DNA of 64,000 nt, from the NCBI RefSeq assembly GCF_000204055.1, contig NW_006768790.1, positions 637,534-701,533 of the forward strand, given 5' to 3'. Made by a program: the position numbers and the translations under genes. The notes under the pieces are model-generated. The model was not told the origin of the DNA and did no database searches. It saw nothing but the letters and a program-made list of their open reading frames with translations. Source of the stretch: Melampsora larici-populina 98AG31 (taxonomy: Eukaryota > Basidiomycota > Pucciniomycetes > Pucciniales > Melampsoraceae). Positions 3,623 through 42,106 of the stretch are shown here, piece after piece. Position 1 is the first letter of the stretch, and each line of letters opens with the position of its first letter.

Positions 3623-3665
3623 CACTGCGTCCACGAGAGACGTTCTCGACGTCGAGATCGTTAGA
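3623..3665 (+). repeat. CACTA left terminal inverted repeat (43 bp)
   Basis: It begins CACTGCGTCCACGAGAG and contains the perfect palindrome CTCGACGTCGAG, a plausible transposase-binding core. It is flanked on the outside by ACC. The sequence downstream (3666-4420) shows no further match to the other end. Confidence 0.85.
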
Positions 3666-5475
3666 ACGTGTCAACTTTGTTCTTTGAGATTTGAAATTTG
3701 AAATTTCGTTCTTCTCCTTAGTCGTAACCTAAGCTCTCTGAGCTATCTGGTGCTCAGCCGTCTTTGAACACTAAGTTAATCAAGTGTATGATCAAAGTTG
3801 AGCTGAACTAGTGCAGCTCAGCACATTACCTGAGACTACAATCGCTCACTATTGGTTTCCACAATCCCTTTCCACTCGGCTTACATCCCTTCCCATCGCT
3901 CGCTCTACCTAAGTAGAGCCAATCACGTTTTTTATGTGCGGGGCGTGAGGATGTCCCGGACACCCGTTTCCAAACCATCATGCTCGGAAGTCCTGATGTT
4001 CAGACAAAGTTTTCGCGGGGAAATCTTTATCTGTAAATTACAGCCACCCTGTCAAATACTAATTTACTCTCCAAAAAGTTCCTCACACGCGAAAAGAAGA
4101 AACCCTTTTGCAATTTCAAGTAACCCGATTTTCAAGGATTTGCTTGATCAATAACCATACTTCAATTATCTTCACTTGATTTCAAATCACAACATGAATC
4201 CAACGACAACTACCCCACCTCACCTCTCCATGCCAAACAACCGTAGTTGAGAGTTGAGAATGATGATTAGGAGTTGCATAGGTAAGTATTCATCCAATCC
4301 ATCTCCATCGTAACTTAATTGTGATATTGATTATTCGCCTTTATCATCTAATCTTCCAATTCATCAAGAAGCTCATCTCAAACAAACTCACCACCGAATC
4401 ATCTTTCACCTACCTCTTCACTCCCTACCGATTCATCTTCATCTTCAGATCATCTATCTTCCTCCAACCTTTCAAGTTCAATCGATCATTTACATCATCA
4501 TTATTTACATCATCATCACTGACATCTCTCTCAAAACCAATCGAATGAATACCTAATCATGGATAGATCCTAATTCCTCTGTTGCTCTATCTACTTCAAT
4601 CAACTAATCACATTCACATTGTAATCATTTGCTCGACACATTCGTTTTTGTAGCTTACAATCATCACCCATTTGATATTTTGTTTAGTTAATCGTTTGAT
4701 TGTTGAAATTTCATACTTGTTCGGATCTATTACGTTAACTTTTGCACACCTACACATTCATGAGATTAATTTCAATCCACATCGATAGCAATTGTTCCAT
4801 AGAGGAAAAAGAGGGTCTCGACTTGAGCTGTTTGTAGAACAGTAAACTAGCTATAGCTACGAGACATTTCAAATCGAAATGATCTTCATCTATCTATCTA
4901 GGAATGAAACCTTTGTGATAAACAAGAGCTTTAGCTACAGCGGCACCATTTGTAGCAGACATAGACTCAACTCAATTTCTAGCAATAGATTTAGTCAAAT
5001 AAACAAATTTGATATCAACAATCTCTCCAACTGATCTTTTGAATAAAGCTACATGATAGATCTGTCATGAGATCAAAGGATATTCCATCAACTGTTATAT
5101 ATCCTTTTGGGATAAACAACGAAGTGTTTGGTAAGCATTTGCGTTATGTTCCTAATGTAGATTGCATTCATACCAAGTCTCCATATATTTCCATTGGTTC
5201 TGTTTCTGCGGTGAAAACGAGGTTTTTTAAAGTGTCAGTCTGTCATTTTTTGAGATGAGATACAATTAGAATCCCGAAACCCCACGGATCCATGAATCAC
5301 CCACATTTGATTGAATGAATTTTTAATTATTAAAAGTATAACATTTTTGGTGGTAGAGGATCAATGATTGATTTAGAGGGAACATCAATGTCAGATCAAA
5401 TAGGGAACATGAATTTCAGATCAAATACATTTCAAGTATAACAAGCCAAATGAAACCTATTCACGAAGAATAATT
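3666..5475. other. CACTA left subterminal region, no gene recognised
   Basis: No convincing gene was found between the left TIR and the stop of the transposase. It holds the left copy of a subterminal inverted repeat (4424-4517). A coding-like remnant on the minus strand around 4880-5050 (SVGEIVDIKFVYLTKSIARN, broken by stops) may be a captured gene piece that I cannot name. The rest is AT-rich. Confidence 0.5.
4424..4517 (+). repeat. Subterminal inverted repeat, left copy
   Basis: About 93 bp match the reverse complement of 41662-41754 with about two differences. The block starts CCTACCGATTCATCTTCATC. It lies 0.76 kb inside the left TIR, while its partner lies 0.31 kb inside the right TIR. 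Such paired subterminal repeats are typical transposase-binding regions of CACTA elements. A gene fragment captured twice is the alternative. Confidence 0.75.
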
Positions 5476-8400
5476 TTATGAAATGAAAATGTAAACGATT
5501 TTATGAAATGAAAATGTAACCAGGCGGAGGATGCGTGCACCCTCATAAACTTGACCACTGTCAACTGCTTTCATCGACAAATGAGCTCTGTGAACAAAGG
5601 CATCAGCCAAAGGATTGCAGTTAACGCAGTTAACAACAATGATAGGACTCACATAATTTTTCAAGCTCACCATAGAGTATGTGCTGCTTTGAATATGAAA
5701 GCTTCCTGCCGGGTTCTTGAGCGCAGCAACATGCCCTATGAGATCACAATAGTCAACAACCACGTGATTGCTTGTCATTTCATATACAATAGTCGCCTTG
5801 AGAAGTGGATGATGCAAGTACAGATTTTTTACGGAATCTTCGGTATCTAGAGGTGTGAATGGCTCTACCAATAGGAATGTTGCTTCTGGGATAGCTTTGC
5901 TACGGAATAAACCCTTGATCTTACCATATGCTATCTTTCCTATGTAATGATAAGAAATCAAGCTATTACCTTTTGTGAGGGAATCACTCGAGTAAGTTTT
6001 CCTTGAAACTCTGAGCCGATTTGTGATTTGTACGAGAGCCGGCAGCTTGTTGGATATATTTGGCGTATGAGAATCATTGTTGATTGAACTGGAAAATCGG
6101 CCGTATCTTTGATTAATATCATTGTTTATATAGCTCAGCCAGATTTGATAATTATCGTGATCAAGTTCCTGATCCTTCCACTTTGGTAATGAAGTACCTG
6201 TGAGTGACTCAATGGCTGACTCCCTGATGCGTTCTTCTGCTTGACTAAGGAATGTTGGGGCTTGATTCAAGACAGCAAGAAGATAGCCTTCACGGGAGAA
6301 AGCTTTACAGAATATTTTGTCCAATTCATCTGTGAAACCGATCATCAGAAAAACCACAAGGATATAAAGAAAAGCAGAGAAAGACGTACCTGGGTGACGA
6401 TTGTTTTGAATGTCCGATAGAGCTCCATTGATACGTTCACCAAAATAACCAGCCGTGGAAGCTGGAGGACCAAAGAGAAGTGCAATATCGGGTAAGTGTT
6501 GGCAAATGTGCATGTTTTTTTTTATGCTGACATGCGGCCAATGGGTGCCTATGTGTTCACGAAAGACTCGAATTCGAGACTGTAGCTCTAGTCCATCTTC
6601 CTTAGTAAAAGTTCGAGATACAGTGACATTGGCTATCTCTACAAGCTTGATGATACTCTGGCACATGATCTGGCGCTGGGGGTCTTCGGAATGATACAAA
6701 TCAGGGATGGTTGCAAGAACCATATACACTGTATAGAAAACGAGCCATTCAGAAGCCTTAATATAACCTAAACTTACTGTCCCAATTTTTGTAGGGACTC
6801 GAGTCATCCAAGAGGGGGTTTGAGTGTTTCTCATGACCTGATGCAGGCGATATAGATCTGCAGGCTTGAATGTTATTGGATTTGATGGAACTTCAAGCGG
6901 CTGAGCAACGTCAAGCGGCTGAGCAACTTCAAGCGGCTGAGCATTCGCAGTTCGTACTCGTTTTCGGACTTGTGTAATTCTTTTGCGCGGTCGAGCCAGA
7001 GAGTCGCGTATAGTGGAGTGGCTGCTGTGTTCAGAGTCGCTGTCACTGATGTTTCCAGGCCTCTTTCGCTTCCTACTATGAGCTGTGCGGATTGGATAGT
7101 GAGAAGATGATCCTTCTTGCACATCAGAGATTCCAGAGGTAGAATTCTGAGATGAGGGGGGGTTATTTCGAACAGCTTTGACCCTGCGAGGTAAGATCTT
7201 GCGCGTGGGGAGGCTAGGTTGTTTGGCGGAATTCTTGCTGTTGGATTCTAGATCAGCAAGGTGTGAATCGGTTTCGGTGCTCTCTAAAGCAGTAAGGTTG
7301 TTGTTGCTGGATTCAGTTGAACTATCATAGACTTCTGACAGATCGGGATTGCGAGATGAGTCATTATGGGTATTTTCAGTTGGATTGTTTTCATTTGTTT
7401 CACATTCAGGAGCATCTAAAGACTCTCGGACCCCGATTAGCCCTAATGGGGGATCAAACTAAATTTTTGAATAAGCCATCATTGAATGATCCAGGTACGG
7501 ACAGAAGAATACTGTGACTCACATGGAAGTCTTCATAAACTCCTCTGTCCGCGTTCGATTCTTCTAGTGCCTTTAATGACTTCCCTGCGGCTTCAATATT
7601 TAATACTGAGATCGCATGATCTTTCATAATTCCAAGGAGTAAACAGTGCATGATGTCTATAGTAACAAAGTTATGGGGTTGCCAGTAAGGGAGCTCCGAA
7701 AAAACGCTGTATCGTACGCCGTACTTATCGAAGATCGTATCTTGTTCCTCCAGGTTTGGAGCGTCTTGCCATGCTTGAGCATGGATCTGATGATTGCACC
7801 TTTTCGGCCACTTGCTCATATCAATTTCGTCAATGTCATTGATTGTGAGATCGCAATGAACACAAAAGTGAGTGGCAGAATGTGCTGCAAAGCCAGAAAT
7901 TTTCCTCATTGCGACCAAGTCAGCAATGAGTGGCCACAGAGCAACTCGAATAAGGCGGCCATTAGGATATTTGTGCGTTGATGTAAAGTGGACACCTTTC
8001 CAAAAGTCTTGAAGCTCCGTCACCAATGGTCGCAAGACGTGATTGATTTGATCCTTTTTGGGTTCACGTGGGCCGGGAACCGTAGCGTAGAGAAACAAAT
8101 ATTCTCGTTTGTATCGGATTGCGGGAGGCAGATTGAAGCAGACAAGAAGGATGTTTCCAGTCGAGATTTGCCGTCGAGATCCACCGCCATGAGGGTTAAA
8201 CCAGTCACAGTAAAGTCCAAACACCAAATGGCCACTTCTTTGAGTGTAGACGCTTCCAGAAATTCGGCATGTATTCCACATCGTCCCGTCCCATATATCT
8301 GACATTGATGAAGGATCATTCCTGGTATGGCGTAATGAAGCATCTAGATCATACTCAAACTGAGGTAGCATCATCATTTTGGCCAACCATACCTTCAAGG

Positions 8401-9363
8401 AAAGGTGATAAAAAATGCGATGAGCTTTCAAGGAAGGCGTGTAGAGGGCAGAATTGCATCGACGACGAATAATTTCTTTCTTCTTCTGTCTCTTCTTAGC
8501 TGGATCCTTTAGGAATCGCATGTTATCACAATTCAGCTTATAGTCAGCTTTGTTAGTTGGATAGGGTGTACCGTTCAGTCCAAAGCAGGTAGGACAGCAG
8601 AGTTCAGAATTGAGTTCGATGTTCAAATTCAGGCGGTCAAATACTGTAGCAAGACTGGTTGGTATCGTGTCCCAGAATGAAACTCCAGTGTACTTTGTTT
8701 CGACAGCTGCTTGTTCGATCTGAAACTTGGAGAAATGAAGCATCCTCCGACATTGCTCGTGACTAGTCTTGGAGATGAGGTTGCTGTGAGCCGCAATGAG
8801 CATAGCGATCATACACGACGGATGGCGAAGATATACCTCCCGGATACGATGTGCGGAAGTGTTGACCCATCGTGATGATGTTTGGGATCTCTGATTGGGC
8901 CCAATTGGAGATGTCTCATTCGGAAGTTCATTGTAATGTCCATCGTCTTCCAAAGGAGTCCGCTCTCGTTGCGTACATAGTGGCCTCTGCTGCACACGAT
9001 CTGGCATGTCTCCAGTGCTCAAAGATCTTCGTCGCCTCTAAATATCACACGTCAAGAGAGACAAAGGTCCATCAGAAGCAGATAATTATATACAACAAAT
9101 GTTTCACGTACCACGTTGGGTACCGTTCTTCTCATTTCCCGGGATGACTGACCACCATCTTGATCGTTTTGGACTTGCGGTGGGGGGCTATTCACCGAGT
9201 GCTGATTTGATTTCCGATTTGCTTCTAGCTTTTGTGCATGTGCTGCCGCATTTTTCTTGCTTCGGTTGACTCCGCGATATGAAACTCCGCCGAGCTCGAA
9301 GCTTTGACTTGCACATCCTAGTTCTGTGCACTCACAACGGTAGATCTTGGGCAAAGACGACAT
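5476..9363 (-). CDS. tnp2/Plavaka-type CACTA transposase
   Basis: A four-exon model (9363-9112, 9037-7523, 7458-6390, 6329-5476) with GT-AG introns gives an uninterrupted protein of about 1229 aa. The N-terminus has a Cys-rich start (MSSLPKIYRCECTELGC). The catalytic region shows FGLYCDWFNPHGG (first Asp), FNLPPAIRY, VPGPREPKK, a CVHC knuckle, FVTIDIMHCLLLGI (second Asp) and, in exon 3, GYFGERINGALSDIQNN (the Glu). This order is that of the tnp2/Plavaka lineage, which cuts and pastes elements with CACTR ends. A low-complexity linker containing QPLEVAQPLDVAQPLEV separates the second Asp from the Glu. All key residues and splice sites are intact, so the gene may be active. It lies 1.8 kb inside the left TIR and is transcribed toward it. 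Confidence 0.88.
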
Positions 9364-9369
9364 CTGCAA

Positions 9370-11060
9370 ATGAAAGATCTTGAGTTAAGTCCGATATCAG
9401 TTGGACAAGATTGCCTGGTGCTGAAAGGAATTCTGATCACCCTAGCTGTAAACAGTTACACGTGTGTGTAACCATACATTCTCCGCTCTTCTTCTCCAAA
9501 CACAACTTGTCTTCTGATAAATGGAAGACCTCTTCTACATATGCCTCTTGATCCCTCACTCCATACAACAATAGCTGGATCACTTGTTTCATTACACGTC
9601 ATCACCGTGGTAAGCTTTCTTGCTTTCAGGGACTCAGCAAATTCCACTCATGAAAAAACAGTGGAAGTGTGGCTTCTCAGCAACAAGATAGAGACGATGA
9701 ACGCCTTTGTATGCACATCATGTATGTAAACAATGAGTATAAGCTTGATGCATTAAGTTGTAGAGTTGCCTGATAGATCAGACTTCACCATATGATAAAT
9801 CTGATATGAAACCGCCTTGGCTGGATTCCAAGAATTTTGACTGATTAAACTACATATATGAAACAAATACAAGGATGAAGCGAAAAGATTGTCAGCAATT
9901 TGATCACTTCTTCACTCCTTTCGATCTCTTCATCTTTTCTTTGCACTTTTGACCTGTTCCTAAAAATCAAGAAAATTAGACTACAAACCAACCAAAAAAG
10001 AAACCAGATACGGAGAGGTAGACTTACAAGGAACAATGAAGAAAATCGTAAGCCCAAACGAATCAATAAACAAACATAAGGATCAGCTATTCAGACATCA
10101 TTACTGGAGAGTTTGTCTCGCACATACCAAAGTTGCTATTCGAAGGAGTGAAGAAGCCATACATTTTAATTCATCAATAGATTCATATGCTTCATGGTAA
10201 ATCGAGGTGACACAAAATGAATGAGAAAAACTCACTTGACTTGAAGCAGCTGGATCGAAAAGATTTGAATCTGGATTGAGGTTTTGACAAGTTCAATTAT
10301 TGGAAGCCACTAAAAGTAATAAACAAAGTTCAACCATATGCTATATGAGGATCTGAGAAATACTTTTGACCGACACTGAATAGTCGACCCGTCATACATT
10401 TTCTTGAAGCTGATAGCTATATTTTTAGGAGAAATAGATGTGAACAGATGTTATCTATAGAAATGAGCAAAAAAAGTCAAGAGTGAAATTGAACAAACCC
10501 ATATAAAGAGGTTGCCATTGTCGGATTAAGATGACAGGATATCTTGAAGTACAAAGAAGTTCACAAACTGGAAGTTACTGTTTCTGTGAAAAACAGAAAC
10601 TGGCAGAAACCAAAGGCAGAAACATGTGCTGTATGTGATCGAAATTTACACCCATCGTGTAAAATACCCGAGGGAGCTCAGCTCGAAAGGATCCTGTCCC
10701 GTGATTGCCCTGTATTGGGGCACTGCGGGGTCCTCTCAGGAAGTGATTCTCGATTTGTTTCTAATTCGGACTTCTCAGTGTCATATAGACTACTAGGATA
10801 GGCTTCTCAGATTGATAGGGCTGGTACTTAGCATTTGAATTGATTCTGATCAGCAGATTTTATGCGTATCTGTGACACAAAGAAGTATTTTGGAAGCCTG
10901 AAACTTGAGCAAAGAAAAATAACAAGATAAATATGTACATATCAAGAACAAAAATAAAATGACAAGTGATATCTCAAAATGAAGAAAGAGTGGTATCTCA
11001 AGTCAAGCAAAGTCAACAAATAGGAAGTATTGGATCAGGTGGATTGTGAAATGAGTTGAG
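9370..11060. other. Intergenic stretch inside the giant element
   Basis: This is the spacer between the transposase start and the 3' end of the exon-cassette gene. I saw only short open frames without splice support or recognisable motifs. The first few hundred bases should contain the transposase promoter. Confidence 0.5.
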
Positions 11061-14000
11061 CTAATTCTGTTGCATATCTTGACAGTGTTCGATCATTGAT
11101 GGGAGATTGAAATCGTTGTTTGAAAGTTTTAACGCCGCCCTTGCAGCTTTTGAAAAGCATTGTCGAAACTCCTCACTGACAAGTGATTTGGGAAACCCTG
11201 CAGGCGGCTTACAAGTGCGCTTAGCCTCTGCAGAAATCTCAACGTGGGGCCCGCGGATGAGAGCCTTGATGGCCCTTGTGTGACTGCGCTCATCTTCCCG
11301 GGTATCAATGTGCAGCTTGTCCAGCTCGGAAAAAAGAGTACCCAGAAGGTTGTGTCTCCAAAACAGACGCTTGCGTACCGGCCGGTTGTTCTCATCCATT
11401 TCGTCCTCAGAGTGTACCGTGGGCAGTGATATCAAGTGGCCCAAGTCAGAATATTCAGGCACCTCCTTGTCGAAATAATTGAAAAATGTGTCACGTCGAA
11501 TGGTACAGACCTGAAGGAACCTCAAATGAAGTTTAGAGAATTGGTCCCATCTGGAATAGATGAAAGAGGATACTCACATTATTTCTTGAGTTGCGCTGTG
11601 AAGCCTTTTCCCTTTTCGATTCTGCTGTTCTATTCAGTTTCTCAATGTCGTCATCAGGCTCTTGATCTGATGTATATTGCAGTTTTTTGTTTTCAAACCA
11701 TCTTTCGAGAATCAAATTTTTATTTTGTGCCGTGACTTGATGAGCATTTATGAGATAGTCATCAGCATCACCACACAGATAAGTCTTTTGCCATTCTTGA
11801 AGTATAATCCTTGAAACTGCCTCATTCCATCTTGATTTGAAAGTACTGTTCCAATCAAAGGTTAGTCTAGTGAAGCCAGCGTGGGCCAAGGCCGCCTCAC
11901 AAGAATGAGCTACATCAGAAGAATAACGGCCTCCAGTTTTTTTGTTAGAGACAAGGGACCGGAATTGGACCGGTTTGAGCTTTGATTGGGCCTCTTCGAT
12001 TGCATCCTTTTCGACTAACTCTAAAGTCCGTGGAGTTGCATCAGGATACTTCTTTGTATATCTTGACAGTGCTTTCGATGCGGCCTGATCTGTGATTTGC
12101 CTTGCGTGATGCTTACGTTGTACCCATGTTTCGATCTCTTCCTCCGAAGGAGGCGCAGGGAGAGAAGAGACAAAGGTTATTTTTGCACGGCGAGGCTTAC
12201 GAGTTATGCCTAGGAGTAGTTTGACATAGTCAATAATTGCTACCGATAATTTCTCATGTTGAGATAGGATGGCCGGTTTTGAGGCTTTTTCTCTGCCAAG
12301 TTCACCATGGCGGTCTTTCGTTTTTTTCGCATTGCGGCAACGTCGTTTGTTCTTGTACTTGACATTCTCAGCCAATGAGATTGATTCATCTGACTCGGGA
12401 TCAGAATCAGGATCGGAATCGGGGTCATCAGAATGTGGATTTTCGGGATCAGAATCATTGGTATCACAAGTGTTGGCATTTCTCGTATTGATATCTTGGG
12501 GCGAGTCGTCTGAATTGGCCATAGGAGATAGGGAGCGCTCTCTATGTCTTCCTGTAGCGCGAGAGGTTGAAGGACGGCTTTGTGTGTTTGGTGGTTGTGA
12601 TGATGAAGGTTGATGGTGTGCATTTGAAGTTCCACGTATATGCATTGATCTACTATTGGAGTTCGAGCCATCTGAGTGGGCTATAGGAGATTGGGAGCGT
12701 TCTCTGTGTCTTCCTGCAGCGCGAGAGGTTGAAGGACGGCTTTGTGTGTTTGGTGGATGTGTAGAATAAGGTTGATGGTGTGCATTTGAAGTTCCACGTA
12801 TATGCATTGATCTACTATTGGAGTTCGAGCCATCTGAGTGGGCTATAGGAGATTGGGAGCGTTCTCTGTGTCTTCCTGCAGCGCGAGAGGTTGAAGCACG
12901 TTTTTGTGTGTTCGGTGGATGTGTAGAATAAGATCGTGATGATGAAGGTTGATGGTGTGCATTTGAAGTTCCACGTATATGCATTGATCTACTATTGGAG
13001 TTTGAGCCATCTGAGTGGGCTATAGGAGATTGGGAGCGTTCTATGTGTCTTCCTGTTGTGCGAGAGGTTGAAGGCCGGCTTTGTGTGTTGGGTGGATTTG
13101 TAGGATAAGATTGTGAGGACAGAGGTTGGCAATGCGTGTCTGGAGCTCCAGGTATATGCATGTATCTACTATCCGAGTTTGTTTCATCTGCCGGGGTATT
13201 GCGCAAGGCTGAAGGTCTGGTTCGTGTACTTCCTAGCCGGTGTGTACGGGTAGAATCCTCTTGTGGGTTTCTTGGATCTTCAGGGTATGGGCGCGAGATT
13301 GATCGCCTGAGTTTCGTGTTTGAGGGTCGACGAGTAGAACCAAAAGGTTCATGTAGGTCTGTTGGACCTTCAGGGTATGGGTGCGAGATTGAAGGCCTAA
13401 TTTCCGTGTTTGAGGGTCGCCGAGAAGGAATGAGCGGTTCATGTACGGCTGTTGGATTTCCATGGTTTGGGTGCAAGATGGAAGGCCCAACTGGCATGGT
13501 TGAGGGTCGTCGAGTAGGAACGAAATTGTTTGTTGGGTCTGTTTGATCTGAAGGGTGGGAGTAGGAGGGCAGAGCATTGCTTTCCACATTTCTGGGGCGG
13601 TGTTCCTGCATGTAACTACTCCTAGGACAATCTGTAGACTGGTGCAACTCGTATAGAGAATGATCCAAATTTCCTGGAGCCTCATTAGACCAAGACATCG
13701 GGGAAAAAGATCTCTGCCTAGTTTCCATCAAGTGAGAGGTTGAAGGCGCCATTTGTTGATCACTGGGCAGGGGTGTGTCCGTATCTTGCTGATACTTGTC
13801 AACGGGAGGGGGTGGAATATGGGGGTTCTTGTGGTGCTTTTCGGCGTATTGCAAGGTTGAAAAGCGAGTCTGACGTTGATCGTGGGTTTTCTTTCTATGA
13901 ACATCTCTAGAAAAGAATTGTGTTCTCTGATGTGACGGTGTGGCCGGCTGCATATGGAGTGAAGCCAAAGACTGGCTTTGAGAGCTGTTAGGTTGACGTG

Positions 14001-17000
14001 TATGGCTGAGGGAAGTTGTGCGGGGAGGGGTGCAAATAGACATTCTTGAATCTGCTATTGATGGTGATACTGGGACCCTGTAGTCCGAGTCTTGTTGAGC
14101 TGAGTGGTTGAAGTTCAGAGGACGTTCATCATCCCACGTGACTGTTTTTTTGGGGGTGGAAATCTGAGATTCATGTTGAATGAAACTTCCCAATGTGGTA
14201 TGGAGTCGGTTTGAGTGTACATGTGAGTCAACAAGTGCTCCAGACTGACAAGAAGGAGTTGAGATGTGGCTCGTCTGATTTGGCCTATGGGAATGTGTAG
14301 ACGGCCCCCGCAAAGCAAAAGATTGAAGCTGTGCTTCCCGATGATTGAAATTATTTACAGCAGTACGATTGCGATCATAAGATGGCCGAGTTGGAGTGCG
14401 AAGTTCTTCCTGAGCTTGCTTTCTTGAATCCGTGCAAGAGTTTACTAAAGATCAAAGAGACACATCCGTCAGCCTGCAAACTGGATCAACATACAGGTAA
14501 TCTATATGAAACCAAGTTACTGATAGCTGGGATCGTGTTCCCACGTGGCTTCTTGGAGGTATTTAGATCACATGGATCGTCCTCGCGTGCGTGTTTGCCT
14601 GATGCAATTTGCGCAGGACTCAGATCTCTTCCTCTTCGTCGAGTCCTACGCCAGTCACGAGAGTGTCCAGCATGGTCAAATAAAGAACTTCCTGTATATT
14701 AAAAATCGGATGTTTTTTCAGTTGAACTAAAGATGTGTAAGCTGTTTGTAAAAACACTGAGAGCTTACCTGTCATAACTTGATCCTCTTTGGTGCGAAAT
14801 CTAGAGGTGGGTATTGTAAGTGGTGGTGGTTTGTGTTGAGACTCCACCAAAACTATTTGTTGTGAATAATTTCTTGATGATACATCATCATCATATATAT
14901 AGTTGTGACAATTGTTTGGTGGAGGCGTAGTCTCAGTATTCCTTCCTGGACGAGAGCCTTATTATGTTAGTTAAGAAACACTAATCAGTCTTTGAATGAG
15001 CTGAGATATATGGTATCAAGACGTACCATAGGGGATATTAGATTGTGAGCGGTGGGTGTGACTACTGGGAACATTTTCACCAGAACTTGCAGGTTCATCT
15101 AAAGGTAGTGTGCAAAATAAATAAGCAAGGGGTTCTGAAGCGGAAAGAACAAGCAAATGGTTTTCCTGACATAGAGAATCTGGTGTGATTTTGCGCTGTT
15201 TGCCCTGTGCCTTTATTGATCTATATTGGACAAAACTTGGTTGAGTCTTGCTTGAATTTTCGACGGATGTTTTTGGGAAGGATTCTCGAGAAGCCCCCAT
15301 CCTTTCCAATTGAGAGTCCGCTATAAATCATAGAGAAACACCTTTAGCCTTCAGAACAGAGAACAGCAAAGAAATATTGGATCACGGCGTACTGGCTGAG
15401 ATATTAGGCTGTGTGCGGCTCATGTTACTTCTTTCTGGTACATGTTCACTATCTCGTTGACTTCTTTCCTGCCTTTCTTCATGTGAGTCTTTGTGTCATC
15501 AAATAGAAACTTCATTCAGCATAGAGCAATTCTAAGCGATATTGAATTGAAAAATTGAGACGTACTGGTCAGATTGGGCTGTGATTCGGGTGGTGAGCGG
15601 CGAATGCGGCTACTTGCAGACACACCTTCATCAGCACTTACAGTGTCACCTAAATTTGACGTATGTGATGAATCAGTAAAGAATCCTGATGCAGCAAGAT
15701 CCAGCAGATGAATTTCCTTACGAAGAGAATCTGGTGTGATTTCGCGCTGTTTGCCCTGTGCCTTTATTGATCTATATTGGACAAAACTTGGTTGAGTCTT
15801 GCTTGAATTTTCGACGGATGTTTTTGGGAAGGATTCTCGAGAAGCCCCCATCCTTTCCAATTGAGAGTCCGCTATAAATCATAGAGAAACACCTTTAGCC
15901 TTCAGAACAGAGAACAGCAAAGAAATATTGGATCATGGCGTACTGGCTGAGATATTAGGCTGTGTGCGGCTCGTGTCACTTCTTCCAAATTCGTCTTCAT
16001 TATTCCCTCTAGTTCTCTCGTGCCTTGCTTCATGAGAGTCTTGATGTCACCAGATAGATATCAGTCACCACGGAGAAATTTGAAGAAATCCTGAATTGAC
16101 AAAGTGCGATGTACCATGATGGGTTTGTGAACCAATCACCCCTTGCTCCTCTTCATTGACTTTGGCAAATCCTCCTGAAATATAATGCATGATCAGTCAA
16201 CAACAAATGTGTAATTGATGGTCTGATATAATGAGGTTGTATCTTACTTCCACGTGGCTTCTTAGAGTCATTTGGATCACATATTTCCTCCTCGCGGGCA
16301 TGTTTCCCTGATGCAATCTGAGCGGGACTCAGATCTTCTTTCAAAAAGTTTCGCCTTTTCTTACGCCAGTCGCTAGCGTGTCCACTATAGTCAAATAGAG
16401 ATCTTCCTGTTCATTCAAAATTGAAAGTTTGGTTGGCTTGACTGAGACAGTTTCAAGTGGCCTCAGGATGTGCAAGCTGTTCATAAAGAAAAGTGTGAAA
16501 CGTACCTGGTATAGCTTCATCCTCTTTTGTGCGAAGGCTTGAGCTTAGTACTGTAGGTGGTTGCTGTTGAGGGACTGTAGGTGATCGATGTTGAAAATTT
16601 CCTAAAAAGAATCATTGAGAGAACTGATCCATTACGTATCAGAAGACTATCTCAATCATATACTCACAATGAGTATGATGCTTCGTGGGATTATTCTCTG
16701 GAGGTCTTTCCTGCGTTGGTGCACCAGAGTCTTATTGTTATCAGAAGAAAGGATAGTCAGTATGTAACAAATTAGAGGTCGAATTAGTATTAAATTGTCA
16801 AATCAAGGCGTACTACTACTGGATGAGATAATGGGCCGTGGTTGAATGGTATTTGCCTCATCTTCATCATCACTCGTAGAATCTCCTGGAAACAAAATTT
16901 ATAGGCAATGTGAGCAATGTATATTCCAAAAACAAGTACACAAAGCAAGCTGTTCATAAGAAAAAGGGTGAAATCTTACCCGGTATAGGTTGATCATCTC

Positions 17001-19640
17001 TGGCACCAAGATTTGAGGTATGTGCTGTAGGTGGTCCACATCGAGGTACGTGAGATGATTCATACTGAGGTGCTGTAGGTGATTGACGTTGAAAATCGCC
17101 TGAAAAGCATTGTTGAGAAAAAAGTTCTATTACAGGTCAGAAGACTATCTCAATCAGATACTCACAATGAGGACTACAATTGGCAGGATCATTCTCTTGA
17201 GTTATTTCCTGCCTTGGTGCGCCGGAGTCTAATTGTTATCAGAAGACAAGATAGTTAGTATGTAACATATTGAAGGTCAAAGTAGTGGTAAATTTTTCGA
17301 TTGAGGCGTACCAGATGAGAGATTGGGCCGTGGGTGAATGATGTTTGAATCGTCTTCATCATCACTCAGAAAATCTCCTAAAAATACCATTTATAGTCCA
17401 TGTAAGCAATGTCCATTCCAAAGTGAGTACACAAAGAATGTGTAATTGATGATCTGATATAACAAGGGTGTATCTTACTCCCACGTGGCTTCTTAGAGGC
17501 GTTTGGATCAAATGTTTCCTCCTCGCGGGCGTGTTTCCCTGAAGCAATCTGCGCAGGACTGAGGTCTGCTGTTAAATGGTTTCTTCTTTTCTTACGCCAG
17601 TCGCTAGCATGTCCACCATAGTCAAATAATGATCTTCCTGTGTATTTAAAATTGAAAGATTGGTTGGCTTGACTCAGGCAGTTTCAAGTGTCCTCATGGT
17701 GTGAAAGCTGTGCATAAAGAAAAGGGTGACACTGTACCTGGTATAGCTTGATCCTCTTTGGTGCGAAGGCTTGAGCTAGGTACTGTAGGTAGTTGCTGAT
17801 GAGGTACTGTAGGTGGGACTTGTTGAGAGCATTGAGGTGCTTTATGTGGTACATCTTGAGACCCGCCTAGAAATATTTGTTGAGAAAACTGATCTGTTCC
17901 AATTCAAAAGGCTATCTTAATGAGATACTCACGTTGAGAATTGTAATTCACGGGATCATCCTTTTGAGGCGTTTCCCGCCTTGATGTACGAGAGTCTTAG
18001 TGTTGTCAGAAAAAACATTCAGCTTTCAACGTAGGCATAGTCTAAGAAATCTCAGATTGATAAATTGAGGCCTACCAAATGAAACTTTGGGCCACGAGCC
18101 GATCACGTCTGGCCCATCTTCATCGTCACTTGTACACTCTCCTGAATGCAAAATATACAGTCAATATAACCAATTTATCTTTCAAAAACAAGTAAGAGAA
18201 CAATGCGTACTTATAGGTGACATTTTGCCAAGAGGTGGTATGACACTTCCACGCCGCTTCTTCGAGGTGTTTAGATCCCACATTTCATCTTCGTGTGCGT
18301 GTTTTCCTGATGCAATCTGCGCAGGACTGAGGTCTGCTTCCAAATTGTTTCTTTGTTTCTTACGCCAGTCGCTAGTGTGTCCACTATAGTCAAAGAAAGA
18401 TCTTTCTGCTTCTCGGAAAATGAAAGTTGATCAGCTTTACCCAAAAAGTTTCAAGTCGCCTCAAGATGTGCAAGCTGCTCATAAAAAAAGGGTGAAATCT
18501 TACGCGGTATAGCTTGATCATCTCTGGTTCCAAGGTTCGAGCTATGTTTTGTAGGTGGTCCATGTTGAGACTCGCCTGAAGACACTTGTTAATTTCCAGA
18601 CCTGATACATGGCAAATCAGAACGCTAGCTCCTCGTTAAACTCACCATGAGACTTGGCATTATCATACAAGGTCTGGCTTCCTGATTTTGCCAGGCCTGT
18701 CTGTGATTTCCTTCCCACTTCATCAAACAAAAGTCGAGCTGTAAATTATGGAAGGATTAGAAGAAGCTGGGATGCACTAGTTCTCAGCTGTAGGCTCACC
18801 TGCTGCTATTTTGCGCTTGAACCCGTTCATTGTAGCAGACATCATCCCGCTATCACTCTTATTTTCATTACTCTCGGGCGCATTGCTTTGACTTTTGCCT
18901 TTGTATTCTGTTTCGTCGAATATAGATGGAACTGATAATATATCGGTAGATATAATGACAATACAAACAGTCAAATTTGTGTTGAATAAAAGCAACTGCA
19001 CAAGCTCAAATGCAGTCAAAATGTAAGAAAAGACGAACCTTCTATGGCTCGAGCTACCAAACAGTGGCTACCATCAGGGCTGTTGCTACGTTCCGAGTGT
19101 GCTAGGACAGTTTCCGTGTCACTGGCTGCAGTTTCTCACATATTAGTGTAATTCCTTTCCAAAAACAAAAAGGTAGACTTGAGAAAAAGCCCCATGACTT
19201 AACTGCTATGACAATCTTCAGTTCGATCAATTTTGTTGAAAGCGTCTCTTGATGTATGACATCCCGTTTCTGCCACACCATCTTCATCTTGGTGGTGCAA
19301 ATCATTCGATACACCAGGTGCATGTCCAAGATCACCAAAGCTTTTTTCGAGTCGACTATCTCTACTGTAATGGTCGTCATTGTGGGTCCGGCCCACGTCT
19401 GATGGGGAGAATAGCATTAGTGTCTTATGTTACAAGGAATGTGATTCAACGGAAAACGTGCCTTTTTGTTCCTATCCAGCGGAAGACAAACTATTTTCAT
19501 GGCTGTGAGCACCTGGGGAAGCAGTTCCAAGTCAATGAGTGACAAATTGGACGCTAGCAATAAGAGAGACAAACTCACTACTCAATGCATCTTGATATTG
19601 GATACTTGAATCAGAGCTGGCGTAGCAAGAAGGAGACATA
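11061..19640 (-). CDS. Exon-cassette gene of unknown function (transposon accessory gene)
   Basis: The likely start is MSPSCYASSDSSIQYQDALS at 19640, followed by a GTGAGT donor. About 20 or more short exons with good GT-AG borders run to a large exon (14313-11579, about 900 aa) and a last exon (about 11507-11061). Many middle exons are variants of a few cassettes. One reads GRSLFDYSGHASDWRKK followed by DLSPAQIASGKHAREEE (near 14.6, 16.3, 17.6 and 18.3 kb). Another has the form GESQH-PPT then LGTRDDQAIP. A third has the form GD then SDDEDE. The large exon is Ser/Pro/Arg-rich and disordered, with a four-copy tandem repeat and an acidic DPDSDPDSDPES stretch. The C-terminus is folded-looking: LFWRHNLLGTLFSELDKL after an acidic HSEDEMDENN. 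I recognise no family; a transposition accessory or regulatory role is a guess. The full exon chain is not proven. Confidence 0.6.
12531..13220 (-). repeat. Four-copy in-frame tandem repeat, 162-177 bp
   Basis: Units start near 12531, 12693, 12855 and 13032 (spacings 162, 162 and 177 bp) and keep the reading frame. Each encodes a unit containing ERSQSPIAHSDGSNSNSRS, MHIRGTSNAHHQP and an STSRAAGRH-type segment. Two inner units are almost identical, which points to recent copy-number change. Confidence 0.9.
14314..19579 (-). other. Cassette-exon array of the accessory gene
   Basis: In this part of the gene, short exons of 60-200 bp alternate with short introns. The block that begins CCACGTGGCTTCTT on the plus strand recurs at 14541, 16250 and 17481, and in a diverged form at 18249. 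Neighbouring exon types recur in the same order, so several-exon blocks have been duplicated as units. The spacing between 16250 and 17481 is 1,231 bp. Confidence 0.75.
15173..15986 (-). repeat. Recent 263-bp direct duplication
   Basis: Segments 15173-15435 and 15724-15986 match with only a handful of differences at an offset of 551 bp. The copied part includes an exon encoding MERMGASRESFPKTSVEN and PSFVQYRSIKAQGKQR plus flanking intron. The stretch between the copies and the following exons have diverged more. Confidence 0.9.
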
Positions 19641-22729: not shown

Positions 22730-22954
22730 CAGTTCAATGGTCAACGCCAGAAAAGTGCTTAATTATGGCATCACAAATGTATTATGACCAAGAGCACGGT
22801 GAGGCTTTTCATACAGAGGTAGGGCACATGAGACACGGGGGCTAGGCTGCCTTGATATGGGGTATGTAATTTTCCCTGGATCATTGTCTTATCAGTGTTT
22901 ACAAACAACGTATTTGAAGGAAAAATTACAACACAGTGAAGTCATGATCATCAA

Positions 22955-27516: not shown

Positions 27517-27796
27517 AGTTCGACATTTCATCAAATGTCGAACTGTTGAACACATTCAAACCACAAAAAACAAGGAGCAATCAAAGATAATGTGAAAGAA
27601 CGACAGATGAGAAGAAAAAATGAAATAAGACAGACCAAGGCACCAAAGCTCAGAAGAGACAGAGGATGATTGCAAACCATTAAAATACGTAGCAAGTTCA
27701 GCATTTCCTGAAATGTTGAACTTCCAGGCGTGAATACTTGATGATCAGAGGCATAAGCTGCATTGGAGTTCAACATTTCATGAAATGTTGAACTCC
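27517..27796. repeat. Cluster of three 28-32-bp palindromes, right of the duplicated gene
   Basis: Palindromes of the same family as at 22419-22729 lie at 27517-27544, 27695-27722 and 27765-27796. Two are preceded by a shared leader of the form GCAYAAGCTGSATTGG. Compensating changes (TTCGACATTT with AAATGTCGAA) keep pairing in the first copy. Confidence 0.88.
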
Positions 27797-29511
27797 AACA
27801 TTGAACATACTCCGGGAAACAACTGATCAAGACCAAACCAAAAACCGTGAATGGTGGTCTTTGAATACTAAGAAATCAGAAATGTGAAAAGCAGGAATTG
27901 ATATATCTGTCTCATCATGACTGTACACAGAAGTTTCCAAGAGTGATCTTCAAGACTTGAGTCACTTGGCACTGCATTTCTTCTCATACTCCAGTTTGAC
28001 AACAGCGGATCAATCAAAAAGAAGTAAAGTCGGATCAACATCAGTACAACACAAGTGGTATTTAAATTGGATATCTTGATGCAGCCTTCAAATAATCACA
28101 TAATTTGATGTATATAGATCTTCAAAGAAACTAATTCAAAACACGAGCGGTATGTTTGGCAAGGATTTCCCTGATCAATTTATCAACAGAATTAATTAAA
28201 GTGACTATATATTTCTCGATAGAGATATATCAAAACTTACTTATGATATTTGCCCAATGCTTGAACAAATCCGACATCAAGAATAGCCCCGTCAAACATC
28301 TTCTGATGGGAGACCAACAAAGCATTTGTACATCTTAACCGCTCGTCATGTCTTGATCCATTTGATCCTTTGCCTGGCTAACACAGCTTCAATAGTCAAG
28401 CCTGAATAGAAACAATTAATAATCAGCACTATTGATAGGATCAATCGCAAGGTTTCCAAAAACACCTGACTTACTCAGTTTTAAAATATCGTATCTTCCA
28501 ATCAAGATGGAGGTCAAAAGTAAAACACAATGGGGAAGGATTGAATGATTTTCCGTTCTGATTGAAGTTTGGTTGGTCGGAAAGAGTAAATCAAGAATTT
28601 GCCTACTCAGGCTGTCAAGAGCATGATCTGTATGTTCTTGCAGGCTAGGAATAAACCCGATGCGCGGGTCGGTAGCCGGATACACGGTAGGATCCGTGTA
28701 AAAAGTGCCAGGTTCAGTTGACGGCAGTGAATAGCCACTTACAGTTCCCTCTCAAAGATTTGTTTGTTTGTAGCCTTCCCCCATATTTCGCTAATTTTTT
28801 TCCAGCGGGCAGCTTCTTATCTTAACATTTGATTCGTTGAATATATAAATACATCTGAGTACCAAAATCATATCATCATAATGAGAGTCTTTACGATTTG
28901 TCCCTGTGAAAAGAGCTCAATGGTTCATTGCGCTGGATGTAATCTGAAATAATCCATCAGATTCTTTGAGAAAGTTCTTTTCTTCTCTTCAATTGGATTT
29001 CTTTCGGGGTAAGAGAGGACACTTCTAATCTCCATGATACAAAACTTCAATCTGAGACACTCATTTGTATATGCAGCTCAATTGCAGGTATCCATTACTT
29101 CTCCACCAATTGTAACTGTGTCATTCACAGGCATGATGACTCGCCCTCCATGTATATTTAAGGAGATTAATGGCTTCCAATTGATTTTTCAATTGCAATG
29201 AATATTCTCAAAATCAAAGATTTGGGAAGTGTTAATGAGTGCGGGTGGAAGGTCATCTGATGATCGACCTGATCTGACCCCACTTCTCTGACAGATGAAA
29301 AACCAAAGCCAGATCTTGTTTACAATCGGAGGTGGAGATTGAGTCCCCTTACCCGAGGCATTGTCCAGTGTTTATCTCTTCCAACGACGTGGACCAATGA
29401 TTTAATGATTTGTGTTGTTCATATATAGCACAAAGAAAATTCCACTGATTCTAGATGAGATCATTTTGTCTTTCTCAAGTTCAAGACTCTATATCCTTTA
29501 TCCCCTGAACT
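27797..29511. other. Spacer without a recognised gene
   Basis: Only short open frames without supporting motifs are present. A small imperfect palindrome with arms ACACGG/CCGTGT lies near 28682-28699. The promoter of the 29512 gene should be at the right end. Confidence 0.45.
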
Positions 29512-33870: not shown

Positions 33871-35548
33871 TGAAGGTGGTCAAGAGCACGATTAGATTTC
33901 TGAAGAACCGCATTACAAAGGCGAGAAACTTGTTCGGTGAGCTTTCTCATTACAGCTCTTGGACAAGCTCATCTTTCGGGAACTGACTCCATGGTTTTTT
34001 GTATCAAAAGGTTCATCTGATACCTCTGCAGCTGGAACTACTGAGCAAGCAGTCGTAAAACAAGCTAATTTTACCTTTCAAACGCCTTCATTCCATTCCA
34101 AGTCCACTCAGACTTTGGGAGATCCTTTTCTTACACCAGTGGCAGAAGTCACTCAAAGCGCAATTTCTAGTGTTTCTCACTGCATGAGCTTGTCAAGTGA
34201 ATTTCCACATGATGATCGGTTACCTTCACCCGACTCCACGCCAGGCGACCCTTTTCTGGCTCCTAACTCGACCACAGATCCTGAGTTCAATATTCTGGGT
34301 TCCAATGACAAAGATGCTTTAGTCGACTCGCCAGATGCTTTAGTTGACTCACCTTGTTTTCTACGTATGTTTGAAAATTTTCTCTACTTCTTGCAAGTAC
34401 TTCTTGGGTGTCTTGTTGATTGGTGTGCTTTTTGTTTTGCAGTCACATCAAAACTATCACAATCACCTCATAATCGCAATGGCAGCGTTCACAAATCTTC
34501 CAGCACTTCAAGCGACGGTGGCTCTGATGATGTCGTGTCCTCGATCGGGAGCAAATCTCCAGAATACACTGTCACCGAGCCATTATTAGATCAATCCGTG
34601 CTACGAAGGACTATGATATTGATTAACTCTTCTTGGGTGTCGGCGGAGGAAATTATCCCCACTTCTGATTCTAGTGGGATCGACCTGTTACTTAATGCTG
34701 CTGATGTGATCTGTAGGTTCCAATACTTGCTTTCCTGATCCTTCTCTCAAATTCTTCGAATTGTCTTTTTACTCTGGTCTGGAGTTGATTTGAATTTGCC
34801 GTTTCAAATCACTGTTCCGGTCATACCTTTTACGCTTTTGAAAACCTTTCTTACAGCTCACCGGCACACCGATAGTCCCACCACTAATGAAAACCAAGCT
34901 ACAGCTGAAGTTCCCATGGATATCGACAATAATGATGGTGGGTTTGAAAAATCTATATACGTGAATTAGTTGGTTTTAACTAATTCACCTCACTACTACG
35001 GTCATACCTCTTATGCTTTTGGCAATATTCCTCCAGCTCACTGGCACACCAATAGTGCCATCACTAATAAAAAACAAGGTAGAGAAGAAGTTTCCCTGGA
35101 AATCAACGATGATAATGGTGGGTTCGAAAACCTGGCATTCATTTTTTACAAAGACTGACTATGAACTTGATCTATCAGCTAGAGACATTCAATTCAAACG
35201 GTCCAACAGGTTTGCAACACGCAAGATCATCGCCAATTCAGTCAAGCATCCAACTAAGTCTGACGAGGGTAAGCACAAATAAATTCCTTACCACTATATT
35301 CATTGTGAACTCAATATAATGTTGTTACAGCCCCCCCCTATAAGCGCAGGAAGGCTTGTGTATCGGTCTTCACCGGATCAATTACAGGTGATTCTCCCAC
35401 CAGAATTTCTGGTCCTGATGGTCAGTCGACTGTTTCATCATGTTCTGATAGTCATCACCCCTTGCTGACATATGCAATTATGTTTTATCACGATGATTGG
35501 TTGTTCATGTATATGAAGCAGCCTGTCAGATGTGCATTAACAAGGTAG
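33871..35548 (+). CDS. Unknown multi-exon gene
   Basis: The likely start is MKVVKSTIRFLKNRITKARNL at 33871, ending at a GTGAGC donor. Exons with good borders follow: about 34007-34364 (GSSDTSAAGTTEQAVVKQAN onward, Ser/Thr-rich), 34443-34711 (donor GTAGGT), two near-identical exons at about 34857-34938 and 35034-35115, and a last exon (after the acceptor at 35333) starting PPPYKRRKACVSVFTG and ending TAG at 35548. A basic patch PYKRRK could be a nuclear localisation signal. The start mimics that of the 37183 gene (short helical first exon, then short low-complexity exons), so they may be paralogues. Exon linkage is a prediction. Confidence 0.5.
34857..35130 (+). repeat. Tandem exon duplication, 178-bp period
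   Basis: Segments 34857-34952 and 35034-35130 are about 80 percent identical by eye. They encode AHRHTDSPTTNENQ-type and AHWHTNSAITNKKQ-type peptides ending in NDDG before a GTGGGTT donor. It is the same mode of growth as in the large cassette gene. Confidence 0.75.
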
Positions 35549-37182: not shown

Positions 37183-38334
37183 ATGAACGGCATCAACCAA
37201 ATTGTATCTCAAAAACTCACTGCGCTCCAAAACTGGACCACCAATCGGACGTTCACCATAAAAGACCTGAACCGAACTGTGTCTGAAAAATTCACTCTAC
37301 TTGGTAACCTAATCACTGTCAATTGGGAATCTACGACAGATGTGAATGGTGAGTTTTCTTCCTTGAGAAAGAGTTTTCCTGTTGGTTTTCACTCACTCAT
37401 GTCTTTCATCCTTTACAAGTTGCGAAAGCTACTGACAGAAACTCTACGGGCTTAGGTAGCGATGATCATGATGGTGAGATTCTTTGTTACCCTACTTGTT
37501 TTATCTTATTAGCCATCGTAGTTTGAGTCTGCTGAAACACTTTAACTTGAATCACAAATGCATGTCAGATACATCGGTTGAGGATCAAACAAGCAAACCT
37601 GATTATCAAGTAGTGGATATCGATGTTCACTCTTCTGATACCGAACAAACTGATATTCTCAAAATTCCTACTGACCCAGAGGAAATTGGTGAGCAAGTGA
37701 ACTTTGACAATGATGCATATTGTCATGAATCACTGATCTCAAAACTTCCTGTAGCAGTCTCAGTGTTGATTGCTAACAACAAACGACGTACCAAACGACG
37801 TACCACAAAATCTGAAGGGGTACGCTCTTCCAAGCGTATCAAGGTGCGAACTACGAATGATAAAAAACGCAATGCAGACGATGCTTTTGAAGTAGATGCT
37901 ATAGAAGCTATTCAAACCTACTTGAAACGTGGAAAGCTGAATCACAACAACAAGGAGGATTCCCTCGCCAAAGAAGGTAAATCAGTGGAAAAGGCGCCTC
38001 AAGCTGGATATCGTCTTGTGTTCAGGAAAGATTACCGCGGTGAGTCAATTAGTTTTTCTGATCAATAGATACGATATTGATCAAGGATATCTTGGTATAA
38101 GTAGGTGATCTCACCCCAACAACCCCGCTGTGTGGATGCAAAGAAAAAGTGATTCGAATAATCATGTGGTTGGGTGTGGGTGAATTAAATGTCTTGCCCG
38201 ATGCCCCCTGGGGGAACGGATGGAAATATGAAGAAGCGTTATACATATGGAAGAAAACTTTCCATGCTGTGAATCGTGTACTTGATGACGAAGGCCATAT
38301 CCTTGAAGGGTGTTCTGGACCTTTGAATAGTTAG
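37183..38334 (+). CDS. Unknown multi-exon gene with WKYEEALYIW C-terminus
   Basis: Exon 1 starts MNGINQIVSQKLTALQNW and ends at a GTGAGT donor after TTDVNG (37350). Further exons include an acidic/basic stretch (about 37569-38038) with KRRTKRRTTKSEGVRSSKR, a likely nuclear localisation signal, and LVFRKDYRG before another GTGAGT. The last exon, after the acceptor at about 38104, contains a Cys pair (LCGCKEK) and ends MWLGVGELNVLPDAPWGNGW then EEALYIWKKTFHAVNRVL. No family is recognised. The layout resembles the 33871 gene. Confidence 0.5.
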
Positions 38335-38929: not shown

Positions 38930-39728
38930 CTATAGATTTGAAGTTTCACTTCTTTGAATTGGCATAGGATCCCAACTAATTGTATCGGATGACATGAGCA
39001 TTTGGTAATGTTTGATAGTGAATTCTTGAATTTGTGATTTGACTTCTGGTTCATCAATCAAATTCAATGAACAATTAAGCTCAAGTTGAACTTTTTCTAC
39101 GTCTTCCATAGCTTGAGCTTTATGAGATTCGTAGAGAGGAGCATAATCTGAATGTAATCTAGCCGTACCAGATTCGAATGAATTGCGAGCCGAAACTGAC
39201 TCTTGATGTTTATGACGTGAATCCAGTGCACATTTAGTTAATAAAACAGATCTGACAATTGTCTCAAGTAAGTTGTGATCGAGTTTTAAATTGCTTTTGA
39301 ATTCTACTAGTTCAGGTTGTGCTTCAGTCAATTGAAATAAATCCACAAGGTTTTGTGGGAGAGGCTTGAATGCTCCTGTGTCCGCTTCAGGATTTTCTGA
39401 ACCAGATACAGTAGTTGAAACGTGAGGACTAAAGATGTAATCTTCAGGATCAGCAATCTGAATGTGAAACACTTGCTAGAGACTTCACTTACTCATTTTC
39501 ACTTTTGGTCAAGATGTCTTCACAATTCTCGACTTCTTTGGATGAACTTATTGATTCTGCATCACCACCGTTGCTGTTGTCATTATTATCGTCTAGATCG
39601 CCACTATTGTCATCATTGCTTGCGACCTCCTCCTCTGATTCCTCCTCTGATTCAGCATTAGATTCATCAGCCCAATGAAATTGCGGGGCGCGCGGGGGGC
39701 GGCCACCCGTACTCATGGCAGCACCCAC
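38930..39728 (-). CDS. Unknown acidic/helical gene, join not clean
   Basis: The upstream part (39713-39489) starts MSTGGRPPRAPQFHWADE and is strongly acidic (ESEEESEEEV, then DDNNDNSNGG). The downstream part (39472-38930) is helical: VDLFQLTEAQPELVEFK, then LLETIVRSVLLTKCALDSRH. A GTAAGT donor and TTCAG acceptor lie between them, but the phases do not match by one base, so either the splice sites differ or a frameshift is present. Upstream of the start the DNA turns GC-rich and runs into the assembly gap, so the true 5' end may be missing. Confidence 0.4.
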
Positions 39729-39989
39729 CCTGGGACGTTTTTGTATCTTGAGTTTTTTGATGAGTTCGATTTATCTACAAAATTGTTGTCCTGTTCGCAC
39801 TTTTCTTTTTCTTTTTTGCCCCCAAATACAGCTGACGCGCAGCGCAGCAAACCGGCATGACCCCGTGGTTTGGGTCCGGGTCCACCCTGAACTCCCGAAA
39901 CTTTTGAGAGGAGGTCCCGGGTCACATCCTCCCTCAGATTCAGTGCTTGTCACTCGACAATTTTCACAACCATCTCGCACACCAAGAAA

Positions 39990-41650: not shown

Positions 41651-41661
41651 AATAAAGGAGC

Positions 41662-41754
41662 ATGATGACGTAAATCATGATGATGTAAATGATCGATTGA
41701 ACTTGAAAGGTTGGAGGAAGATAGATGATCTGAAGATGAAGATGAATCGGTAGG
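41662..41754 (-). repeat. Subterminal inverted repeat, right copy
   Basis: This is the reverse-complement partner of 4424-4517, with about two differences over 93 bp. It lies 0.31 kb inside the right TIR. Confidence 0.75.
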
Positions 41755-42063
41755 AAGTGGAGAGGTAGATTGAGATGAGGGATGTTCGGTGGTGAGTATG
41801 TAGAGTCTCCAGATTCAGGCAAAATTCTGTATAGTCTATGGCAAAAGAGACGATATCGAGTGAGGGGGGAGGTTGAGGAAATAAGATTGAACATTTGGAA
41901 GATTAAACTGAGCTGCTCTGAGGGTCAGCAACACCCGCTTAACCAGGCTCAACCAGGATGTGCTTTTTGATTGAGGCTTAGAGGCTCTCCTGAGCAGTTC
42001 ACGTGAGCATTTGGGGCCAAAGTCTAGCCAAACTTGGGCCAAACTTGAGACAAACACTGCCCA

Positions 42064-42106
42064 TCTAACGATCTCGACATCGAGAACGTCTCTCGTGGAC
42101 GCAGTG
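42064..42106 (-). repeat. CACTA right terminal inverted repeat (43 bp)
   Basis: It is the inverted copy of 3623-3665 with a single difference: the palindrome CTCGACGTCGAG is changed to CTCGACATCGAG, a CpG to CpA change. It ends GGACGCAGTG and is followed by ACC, the target duplication. Confidence 0.85.

What the first reader, a model, noticed from the sequence alone, without database searches (positions are those of the whole stretch)
3623..42106. A 38.5-kb CACTA/Plavaka transposon carrying about eight extra genes
The 43-bp inverted ends (42/43 identical, CACTG...CAGTG), the 3-bp ACC duplication and a complete tnp2-type transposase together define one mobile unit. It is several times longer than usual for its superfamily. 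Its cargo (11061-19640, 20059-21271, 22955-27173, 29512-30796, 31643-32275, 33871-35548, 37183-38334, 38930-39728) has intact-looking spliced genes with no recognised function. The giant cargo elements known in fungi (Starships) use a tyrosine recombinase; this one would move by a DDE transposase. It could be a gene-carrying vehicle in rusts.
Basis: partly seen in the sequence, partly recalled or inferred. Interest (0 to 1): 0.9.

Follow-up and report, generated by a model that had tools for sequence, protein, structure and literature searches.

The report
Giant gene-carrying CACTA transposon in rust
A 38-kilobase stretch of what is very probably the poplar rust fungus genome is one jumping DNA element, inserted as a whole with its own transposase and several other genes, and two relatives of 37 and 45 kilobases sit elsewhere in the same genome.

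Summary
The 43-bp ends (3623-3665, 42064-42106) match at 42 of 43 positions and are flanked by ACC. The joined flanks, with one ACC, occur uninterrupted and 100% identical over 320 bp at three other loci: exact empty sites, so 38,484 bp inserted as one unit. The same ends bound copy B (36,963 bp, about 99.5% identical, TSD AGA, 18 kb of it N); similar ends bound relative C (44,861 bp, TSD TAC). Three loci hold single ends. The genome is very probably Melampsora larici-populina.

The cargo reading needs correction. g1 (11061-19640) and g2 (20059-21271) are distant paralogues that, with the transposase, form a three-gene core found together at about 50 loci: parts of the transposon, not passengers. 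Block 21991-28348 looks like an exchanged module (93-96% identical in DNA to C, whose core proteins are only 51-71% identical). C also carries a TET-like dioxygenase.

Ends and 3-bp TSD fit CACTA/EnSpm better than Plavaka. It is a giant variant of a known superfamily. Functions of the other genes, and transfer between fungi, are untested.

The parts
3623..3665 (+). left 43-bp terminal inverted repeat
   Evidence: same end at other loci
42064..42106 (-). right 43-bp terminal inverted repeat
   Evidence: 42/43 match to the left end
3620..3622 (.). ACC target-site duplication, left copy
   Evidence: one ACC remains at empty sites
42107..42109 (.). ACC target-site duplication, right copy
4410..4516 (+). 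subterminal inverted repeat, left arm (107 nt, 96%)
   Evidence: the right-end arms of copies B, E and F match it at 88-89%
41662..41768 (-). subterminal inverted repeat, right arm
5476..9384 (-). tnp2-type DDE transposase, three open segments (9052-9384, 7454-9037, 5476-7458)
   Evidence: Pfam (middle segment); 51-71% aa to relative C over the segments; alignment
11061..19640 (-). g1, core gene (MELLADRAFT_64466 in part): repeat-rich N-terminal part, conserved C-terminal domain at 11061-12630
20059..21271 (+). g2, core gene in two exons, paralogous to the g1 C-terminal domain
21991..28348 (.). module shared with other loci, holding gene 22955-27173 (-); right border ends in a g4-like gene fragment
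   Evidence: inverted match 28236-28278/30211-30253; g4 hits overlapping the border at C53 and C169
29512..30796 (+). g4, member of a dispersed gene family
   Evidence: partial homologue in relative C, 41% aa
31643..32278 (-). g5, weak homologue in relative C (38% over 78 aa)
   Evidence: identical in copy B
33871..35548 (+). g6; 5 hits genome-wide with its first long ORF: A, B and three places near a transposase hit or an end-like match
37183..38334 (+). g7, no new stop in copy B (37478-38065 tested); no homologue outside A and B seen in the DNA search
38930..39770 (-). g8; related DNA at C73 and C123

Best explanation
It is a giant autonomous-type CACTA/EnSpm transposon, very probably of Melampsora larici-populina. 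Its tnp2-type DDE transposase cuts at CACTG...CAGTG ends and inserts with a 3-bp duplication. It belongs to a family whose core is transposase + g1 + g2, closely spaced in most relatives. The A-like branch grew to 37-45 kb by picking up and exchanging further gene modules between elements. Shown: insertion as one unit, further giant copies, the recurring three-gene core, low dN/dS of core proteins between A and C. Inferred: cut-and-paste movement of the full length by its own transposase; growth from a compact ancestor; module exchange (from uneven identity); and that g1/g2 are accessory transposition or regulatory proteins, as TNPA is in En/Spm (recalled).
For: Exact empty sites: 3 places, 100% over 320 bp, one ACC. 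Copy B, 36,963 bp, TSD AGA, opposite orientation, 99.3-99.8% identical over the aligned, ungapped sequence. Relative C, 44,861 bp, TSD TAC. Single ends D, E, F. Pfam tnp2. 50 of the 64 best transposase hits have g1 and g2 hits within 40 kb, against 0 of the 18 weakest. A versus C dN/dS 0.12-0.40 for transposase segments, 0.18-0.20 for g1, 0.18-0.24 for g2. Blocks 22169-27380 and 27467-28348 are 96% and 93% identical in DNA to C, while the five other matching stretches outside the module are 68-78%.
Against: No excision or expression data. Copy B has a stop in the last transposase segment, so it may depend on another copy. Between A and B the tested frames show 3 synonymous and 15 non-synonymous differences, no sign of constraint. 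dS between A and C is near saturation, so those ratios are rough. No strong subterminal repeats of the kind TNPA binds were seen in A, C or the C15 element. Junction C has no clean empty site. A and B contain N gaps. The ends of the compact relatives were not found, so their full lengths are unknown.
Confidence: 0.86

Rival explanations
1. Two small elements (or two solo ends) happen to flank unrelated host DNA, giving the look of one large unit.
For: Related ends also occur 2.4-5.2 kb apart and as 111-bp miniature elements in this genome, and single ends exist.
Against: Exact empty sites joining the two outer flanks; two further complete pairs with matching 3-bp duplications at other sites; same internal order in copy B outside its gap.
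Confidence: 0.02
2. A normal-sized three-gene CACTA element inflated mainly by nested insertions and recombination debris, with little true cargo. This overlaps with the best explanation (same element, same movement) and differs only in what the extra genes mean.
For: In 31 of 32 more distant loci with all three core genes their hits span only 5.7-13.7 kb; module 21991-28348, g8 and a repeat at the N gap also occur elsewhere; most g4 hits lie away from the transposase.
Against: Copy B shows no new stop by substitution in the tested frames of g5-g8; g6 is found only in A, B and three places near a transposase hit or an end-like match; four gene families beyond the core or its repeats recur in relative C: g3, g4, g5 and a g1 N-terminal module.
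Confidence: 0.3
3. A Starship-like element moved by a tyrosine recombinase.
For: Size and multi-gene content; Starships are reported from a basidiomycete, Tremella fuciformis (PMC13066641, passages seen).
Against: DDE tnp2-type transposase, long TIRs and 3-bp duplication; no tyrosine-recombinase Pfam hit in the 20 ORFs scanned of 96 listed.
Confidence: 0.01

Closest known systems
Fungal EnSpm/CACTA families of rusts (Kojima 2025, PMC12730594)
   Same: CAC..GTG ends, 3-bp duplication, transposase that resembles Plavaka proteins; three families carry a TET/JBP gene
   Different: The sections I read describe no giant multi-gene copies; TET+ EnSpm is described from P. striiformis, and M. larici-populina is not among the species named for related EnSpm. 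Here a 44.9-kb relative carries a TET-like gene; no ORF of at least 90 aa in A matches it
Plavaka (Pfam PF18759; PlavakaA/B of PMC12730594)
   Same: Transposase matches the Pfam model just above its cut-off
   Different: Plavaka ends are TGT..ACA or CATCA..TGATG; here CACTG..CAGTG; the tnp2 model scores far higher
Enlarged En/Spm of Chondrus crispus, 16-20 kb with 4-5 ORFs (cited in PMC6431247, passage seen)
   Same: CACTA-type element enlarged by extra ORFs
   Different: About half the size, in a red alga
Starship elements
   Same: Tens of kilobases and several genes moved as one unit
   Different: Tyrosine recombinase; here DDE transposase and long TIRs

Membership tests
CACTA/EnSpm (CMCT clade) | 5'-CAC...GTG-3' terminal inverted repeats | tested here: met
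   CACTG...CAGTG, 43 bp
CACTA/EnSpm (CMCT clade) | 3-bp target-site duplication (2-5 bp in the clade) | tested here: met
   ACC, AGA, TAC at 3 of 3 complete giant copies; single ACC at empty sites
CACTA/EnSpm (CMCT clade) | tnp2-type DDE transposase | tested here: met
   PF02992 6.7e-18; candidate D, D, CxxC and E positions are conserved between A and C, placed by eye
CACTA/EnSpm (CMCT clade) | position in a transposase phylogeny | not tested
   no tree was built
Plavaka | Plavaka transposase domain | tested here: met
   PF18759 9e-7, 28.9 bits, cut-off 26.3
Plavaka | ends TGT..ACA or CATCA..TGATG (PMC12730594, section 3.2.2) | tested here: not met
   ends are CACTG..CAGTG
Starship | tyrosine recombinase (captain) | tested here: inconclusive
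   no such Pfam hit in 20 scanned ORFs of 96 listed; a DDE transposase is present instead
KDZ | KDZ transposase with CxC cysteine clusters | tested here: not met
   none in the 20 ORFs scanned of A, whose transposase is tnp2-type; present in the separate C15 element

The most novel reading that the evidence does not exclude
Rusts hold a DDE-transposase counterpart to Starships: giant CACTA elements that gather, swap and spread gene modules, including a TET-like enzyme that may lift DNA-methylation silencing, with the paralogous pair g1/g2 as a new kind of dedicated transposition machinery; they may also move between strains or species.
Probability: 0.35. Interest if true: 0.88.

Novelty: new variant of a known kind. 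Interest (0 to 1): 0.72.

Why it matters
The giant cargo-carrying transposons that I saw described for fungi are tyrosine-recombinase Starships. Here a DDE transposon of 38 kb is shown by exact empty sites to have inserted as one unit in a rust, with two further giant copies. This makes it testable whether cut-and-paste elements of this size move genes within and between rust genomes. The three-gene core (transposase + g1 + g2), recurring at about 50 loci, also gives uncharacterised proteins a likely role in transposition.

Tried and rejected
Structure of g2 (P0004, MELLADRAFT_111368): mean pLDDT 53.6 with 9 sequences, too poor for a fold search, so none was run. Pfam gave nothing above a curated cut-off for the ORFs of g1-g8 or for P0004 and P0006; the best, PF09577 for g8 (0.00041, 20.7 bits, cut-off 24), was not trusted. 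Solved structures: no match to the transposase ORF (E up to 1) or the TET-like protein (E up to 0.001); one meaningless match for the RanBP1-like ORF. Rfam: 0 matches at gathering scores. Protein databases: g1 queries gave 2 and 2 proteins, the g2 query 3; all with a name are from M. larici-populina, but that search needs shared five-residue words and has length limits, and one search scored only part of its candidates, so absence elsewhere is not shown. Subterminal 9-10-mers: one motif four times in A, none in C or the C15 element. The C15 pair (22.2 kb) was first read as another giant of this kind; it holds KDZ-type and TET-like genes and shows no 3- or 8-bp duplication, so it is not counted. 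Copies D and E as one insertion split by the assembly (both show GCA) is possible but unproven. Its P values assume uniform positions, so the internal contrasts (g4; the 18 weakest transposases) matter more. Two of the 50 loci (C2:977579, C53:46001) probably borrow a neighbour's g1/g2.
Full report
What is there. The window is C26:637534-701533 of a 98.3-Mb genome in 243 contigs that the tool does not name. Reversed-pattern controls were 0 against 22 matches, and 0 against 83 with a looser pattern.

It inserted as one unit. I joined 160 bases of each outer flank with a single ACC and searched the genome. Three loci match all 320 bases at 100% (C36:800506-800825, C1:2967092-2967411, C1:158760-159079); two more span the junction, at 99% over 190 bases (C38) and 81% over 318 (C44). 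The target is thus a recently multiplied repeat, and the 38.5 kb is absent from these sister copies. Junction B is spanned at 77-82% at three loci (C19, C70, C8). Junction C has no clean empty site: four matches to its left flank run only 6-16 bases past the join, and on C14 and C163 the right flank resumes after about 0.2 and 0.7 kb of other sequence.

Other copies. Copy B (C17:1123121-1160083, 36,963 bp) lies in the opposite orientation with AGA at both sides and aligns to A at 99.3-99.8%; about 18.3 kb of it is N. Its last transposase segment has a stop. The other eight tested frames gain no stop by substitution; two carry gaps totalling 21 and 12 bases. Relative C (C53:110577-155437, 44,861 bp) has TAC at both sides. 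Single ends: D (C41, left end then N gap), E (C55, right end at the contig end), F (C6, right end then gap). Of 10 end matches with at most 2 mismatches in 25, 6 make the three giant pairs, 3 are these single ends, and C13:36903 has a poor inverted partner 111 bp away, so it looks like a miniature element. The looser pattern shows inverted neighbours 2.4-5.2, 9.7, 12.1, 22.2 and 26.1 kb apart and miniatures of about 111 bp; I paired these by position only and, apart from the 22.2-kb one, did not read their interiors.

Core genes, not cargo. Protein searches of the whole genome gave 82 transposase rows (of 264 candidates), 93 g2, 93 g1 and 65 g4 rows. Of the rows I used, 54 of 71 g2 and 51 of 70 g1 hits lie within 30 kb of a transposase hit, while those zones cover 4.8% of the genome; for g4 it is 10 of 52. 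Both g1 and g2 lie within 40 kb of 50 of the 64 best transposase hits and of 0 of the 18 weakest. Among the 32 more distant loci with all three, 21 have g1 and g2 on opposite sides of the transposase, mostly about 3 kb away each, and 11 have both on one side; the median span of hit starts is 7.0 kb, 31 of 32 between 5.7 and 13.7 kb. In the 18 loci nearer to A the median is 13.5 kb, range 7.2-38.3. These are gene spacings, not element lengths. g1 and g2 are paralogues: 26% identity over 169 positions, E 2e-8, for P0004 against P0006, with reciprocal cross-hits. I infer a compact three-gene ancestor, of which A is a swollen descendant.

Variable modules. Between A and C protein identity is 51-71% over the transposase segments, 63-70% for conserved g1 parts and 60-61% for g2; g4 and g5 have weak homologues in C (41% and 38%). 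dN/dS is 0.12-0.40 for these core parts, but dS is about 1 or more, so the values are rough. Against this, 22169-28348 matches C at 93-96% in DNA, and parts of the block occur at 98-99% on C30 and C169, where none of the 82 scored transposase hits lies near. Its right border runs into a fragment of a g4-like gene. This looks like recent exchange of a piece. g6 is the opposite: 5 hits, A, B and three places near a transposase hit (C2, C162) or an end-like match (C104). Relative C additionally carries a TET-like 2OG-Fe(II) oxygenase (1.2e-42, with an HxD motif) and an FG-repeat/RanBP1-like gene whose matches fall below Pfam's cut-offs. No A ORF of at least 90 aa matched that TET-like ORF.

How it likely works. 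The tnp2-type DDE transposase, long CACTG ends and 3-bp duplication are those of CACTA elements, which move by cutting and pasting (established knowledge, recalled). I infer that the same happens to the whole 38 kb. For g1/g2 the best guess is accessory proteins acting with the transposase, by analogy with TNPA/TNPD of En/Spm (recalled); no subterminal repeats support this and the structure prediction failed.

Compared with what is known. PMC12730594 (outline with abstract, sections 3.1, 3.2.2 and 3.4, and passages seen) places CAC..GTG, 3-bp families with Plavaka-like transposases in EnSpm, describes TET+ EnSpm from P. striiformis, and found no TET+ Plavaka in Pucciniomycotina. PMC6431247 (passages) cites 16-20-kb En/Spm in Chondrus. 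PMC12210899 (passages) surveys rust transposons; its mentions of Starships are in the background and reference list. PMC13066641 (passages) reports Starships of 42-606 kb in the basidiomycete Tremella fuciformis, so Starships are not confined to ascomycetes. Searches for giant or cargo-carrying CACTA/Plavaka/EnSpm elements in fungi (open-licence library only) showed none like this in the listings. I call it a new variant of a known kind.

Noticed in passing
C15:1598032-1620228 (L046-L048): A 22.2-kb pair of related CACTGCGTCC ends encloses a TET-like gene (2.3e-28) and a CxC1 cluster of a KDZ-type transposase (2.9e-18), with no matching duplication: KDZ and CACTA-like elements may share similar ends here.
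   Followed up: partly
C10:1361299, C12:38261, C53:392689, C13:1469483, C27:927870, C6:563104, C65:353709: Miniature elements of about 111 bp with the same kind of ends.
   Followed up: no
window 39777-39986: A roughly 210-bp repeat beside the N gap that elsewhere often occurs as inverted pairs about 2 kb apart: probably one arm of a nested small transposon.
   Followed up: no
window 2882-3622 and 42107-42520: The insertion target is a recently multiplied repeat beside a Copia-like integrase fragment (weak Pfam matches), with direct repeats on the right.
   Followed up: partly
window 53868-55229 and 57736-58602: ORFs that by eye resemble a TBC-domain protein and a cullin (not tested), suggesting ordinary host genes about 12 kb beyond the element.
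   Followed up: no
window 22419-22730 and 27695-27794: Repeated 28-bp palindromes (AGTTCAACATTTCATGAAATGTTGAACT type) near both borders of the exchanged module.
   Followed up: no
C2:3411087-3492275: Core-gene hits spread over 80 kb with a second compact transposase-g1-g2 set in between: possibly one element nested in a giant one.
   Followed up: no
C41:372347 and C55:633337: A left end and a right end on different contigs, both next to GCA: perhaps one insertion split by the assembly.
   Followed up: partly
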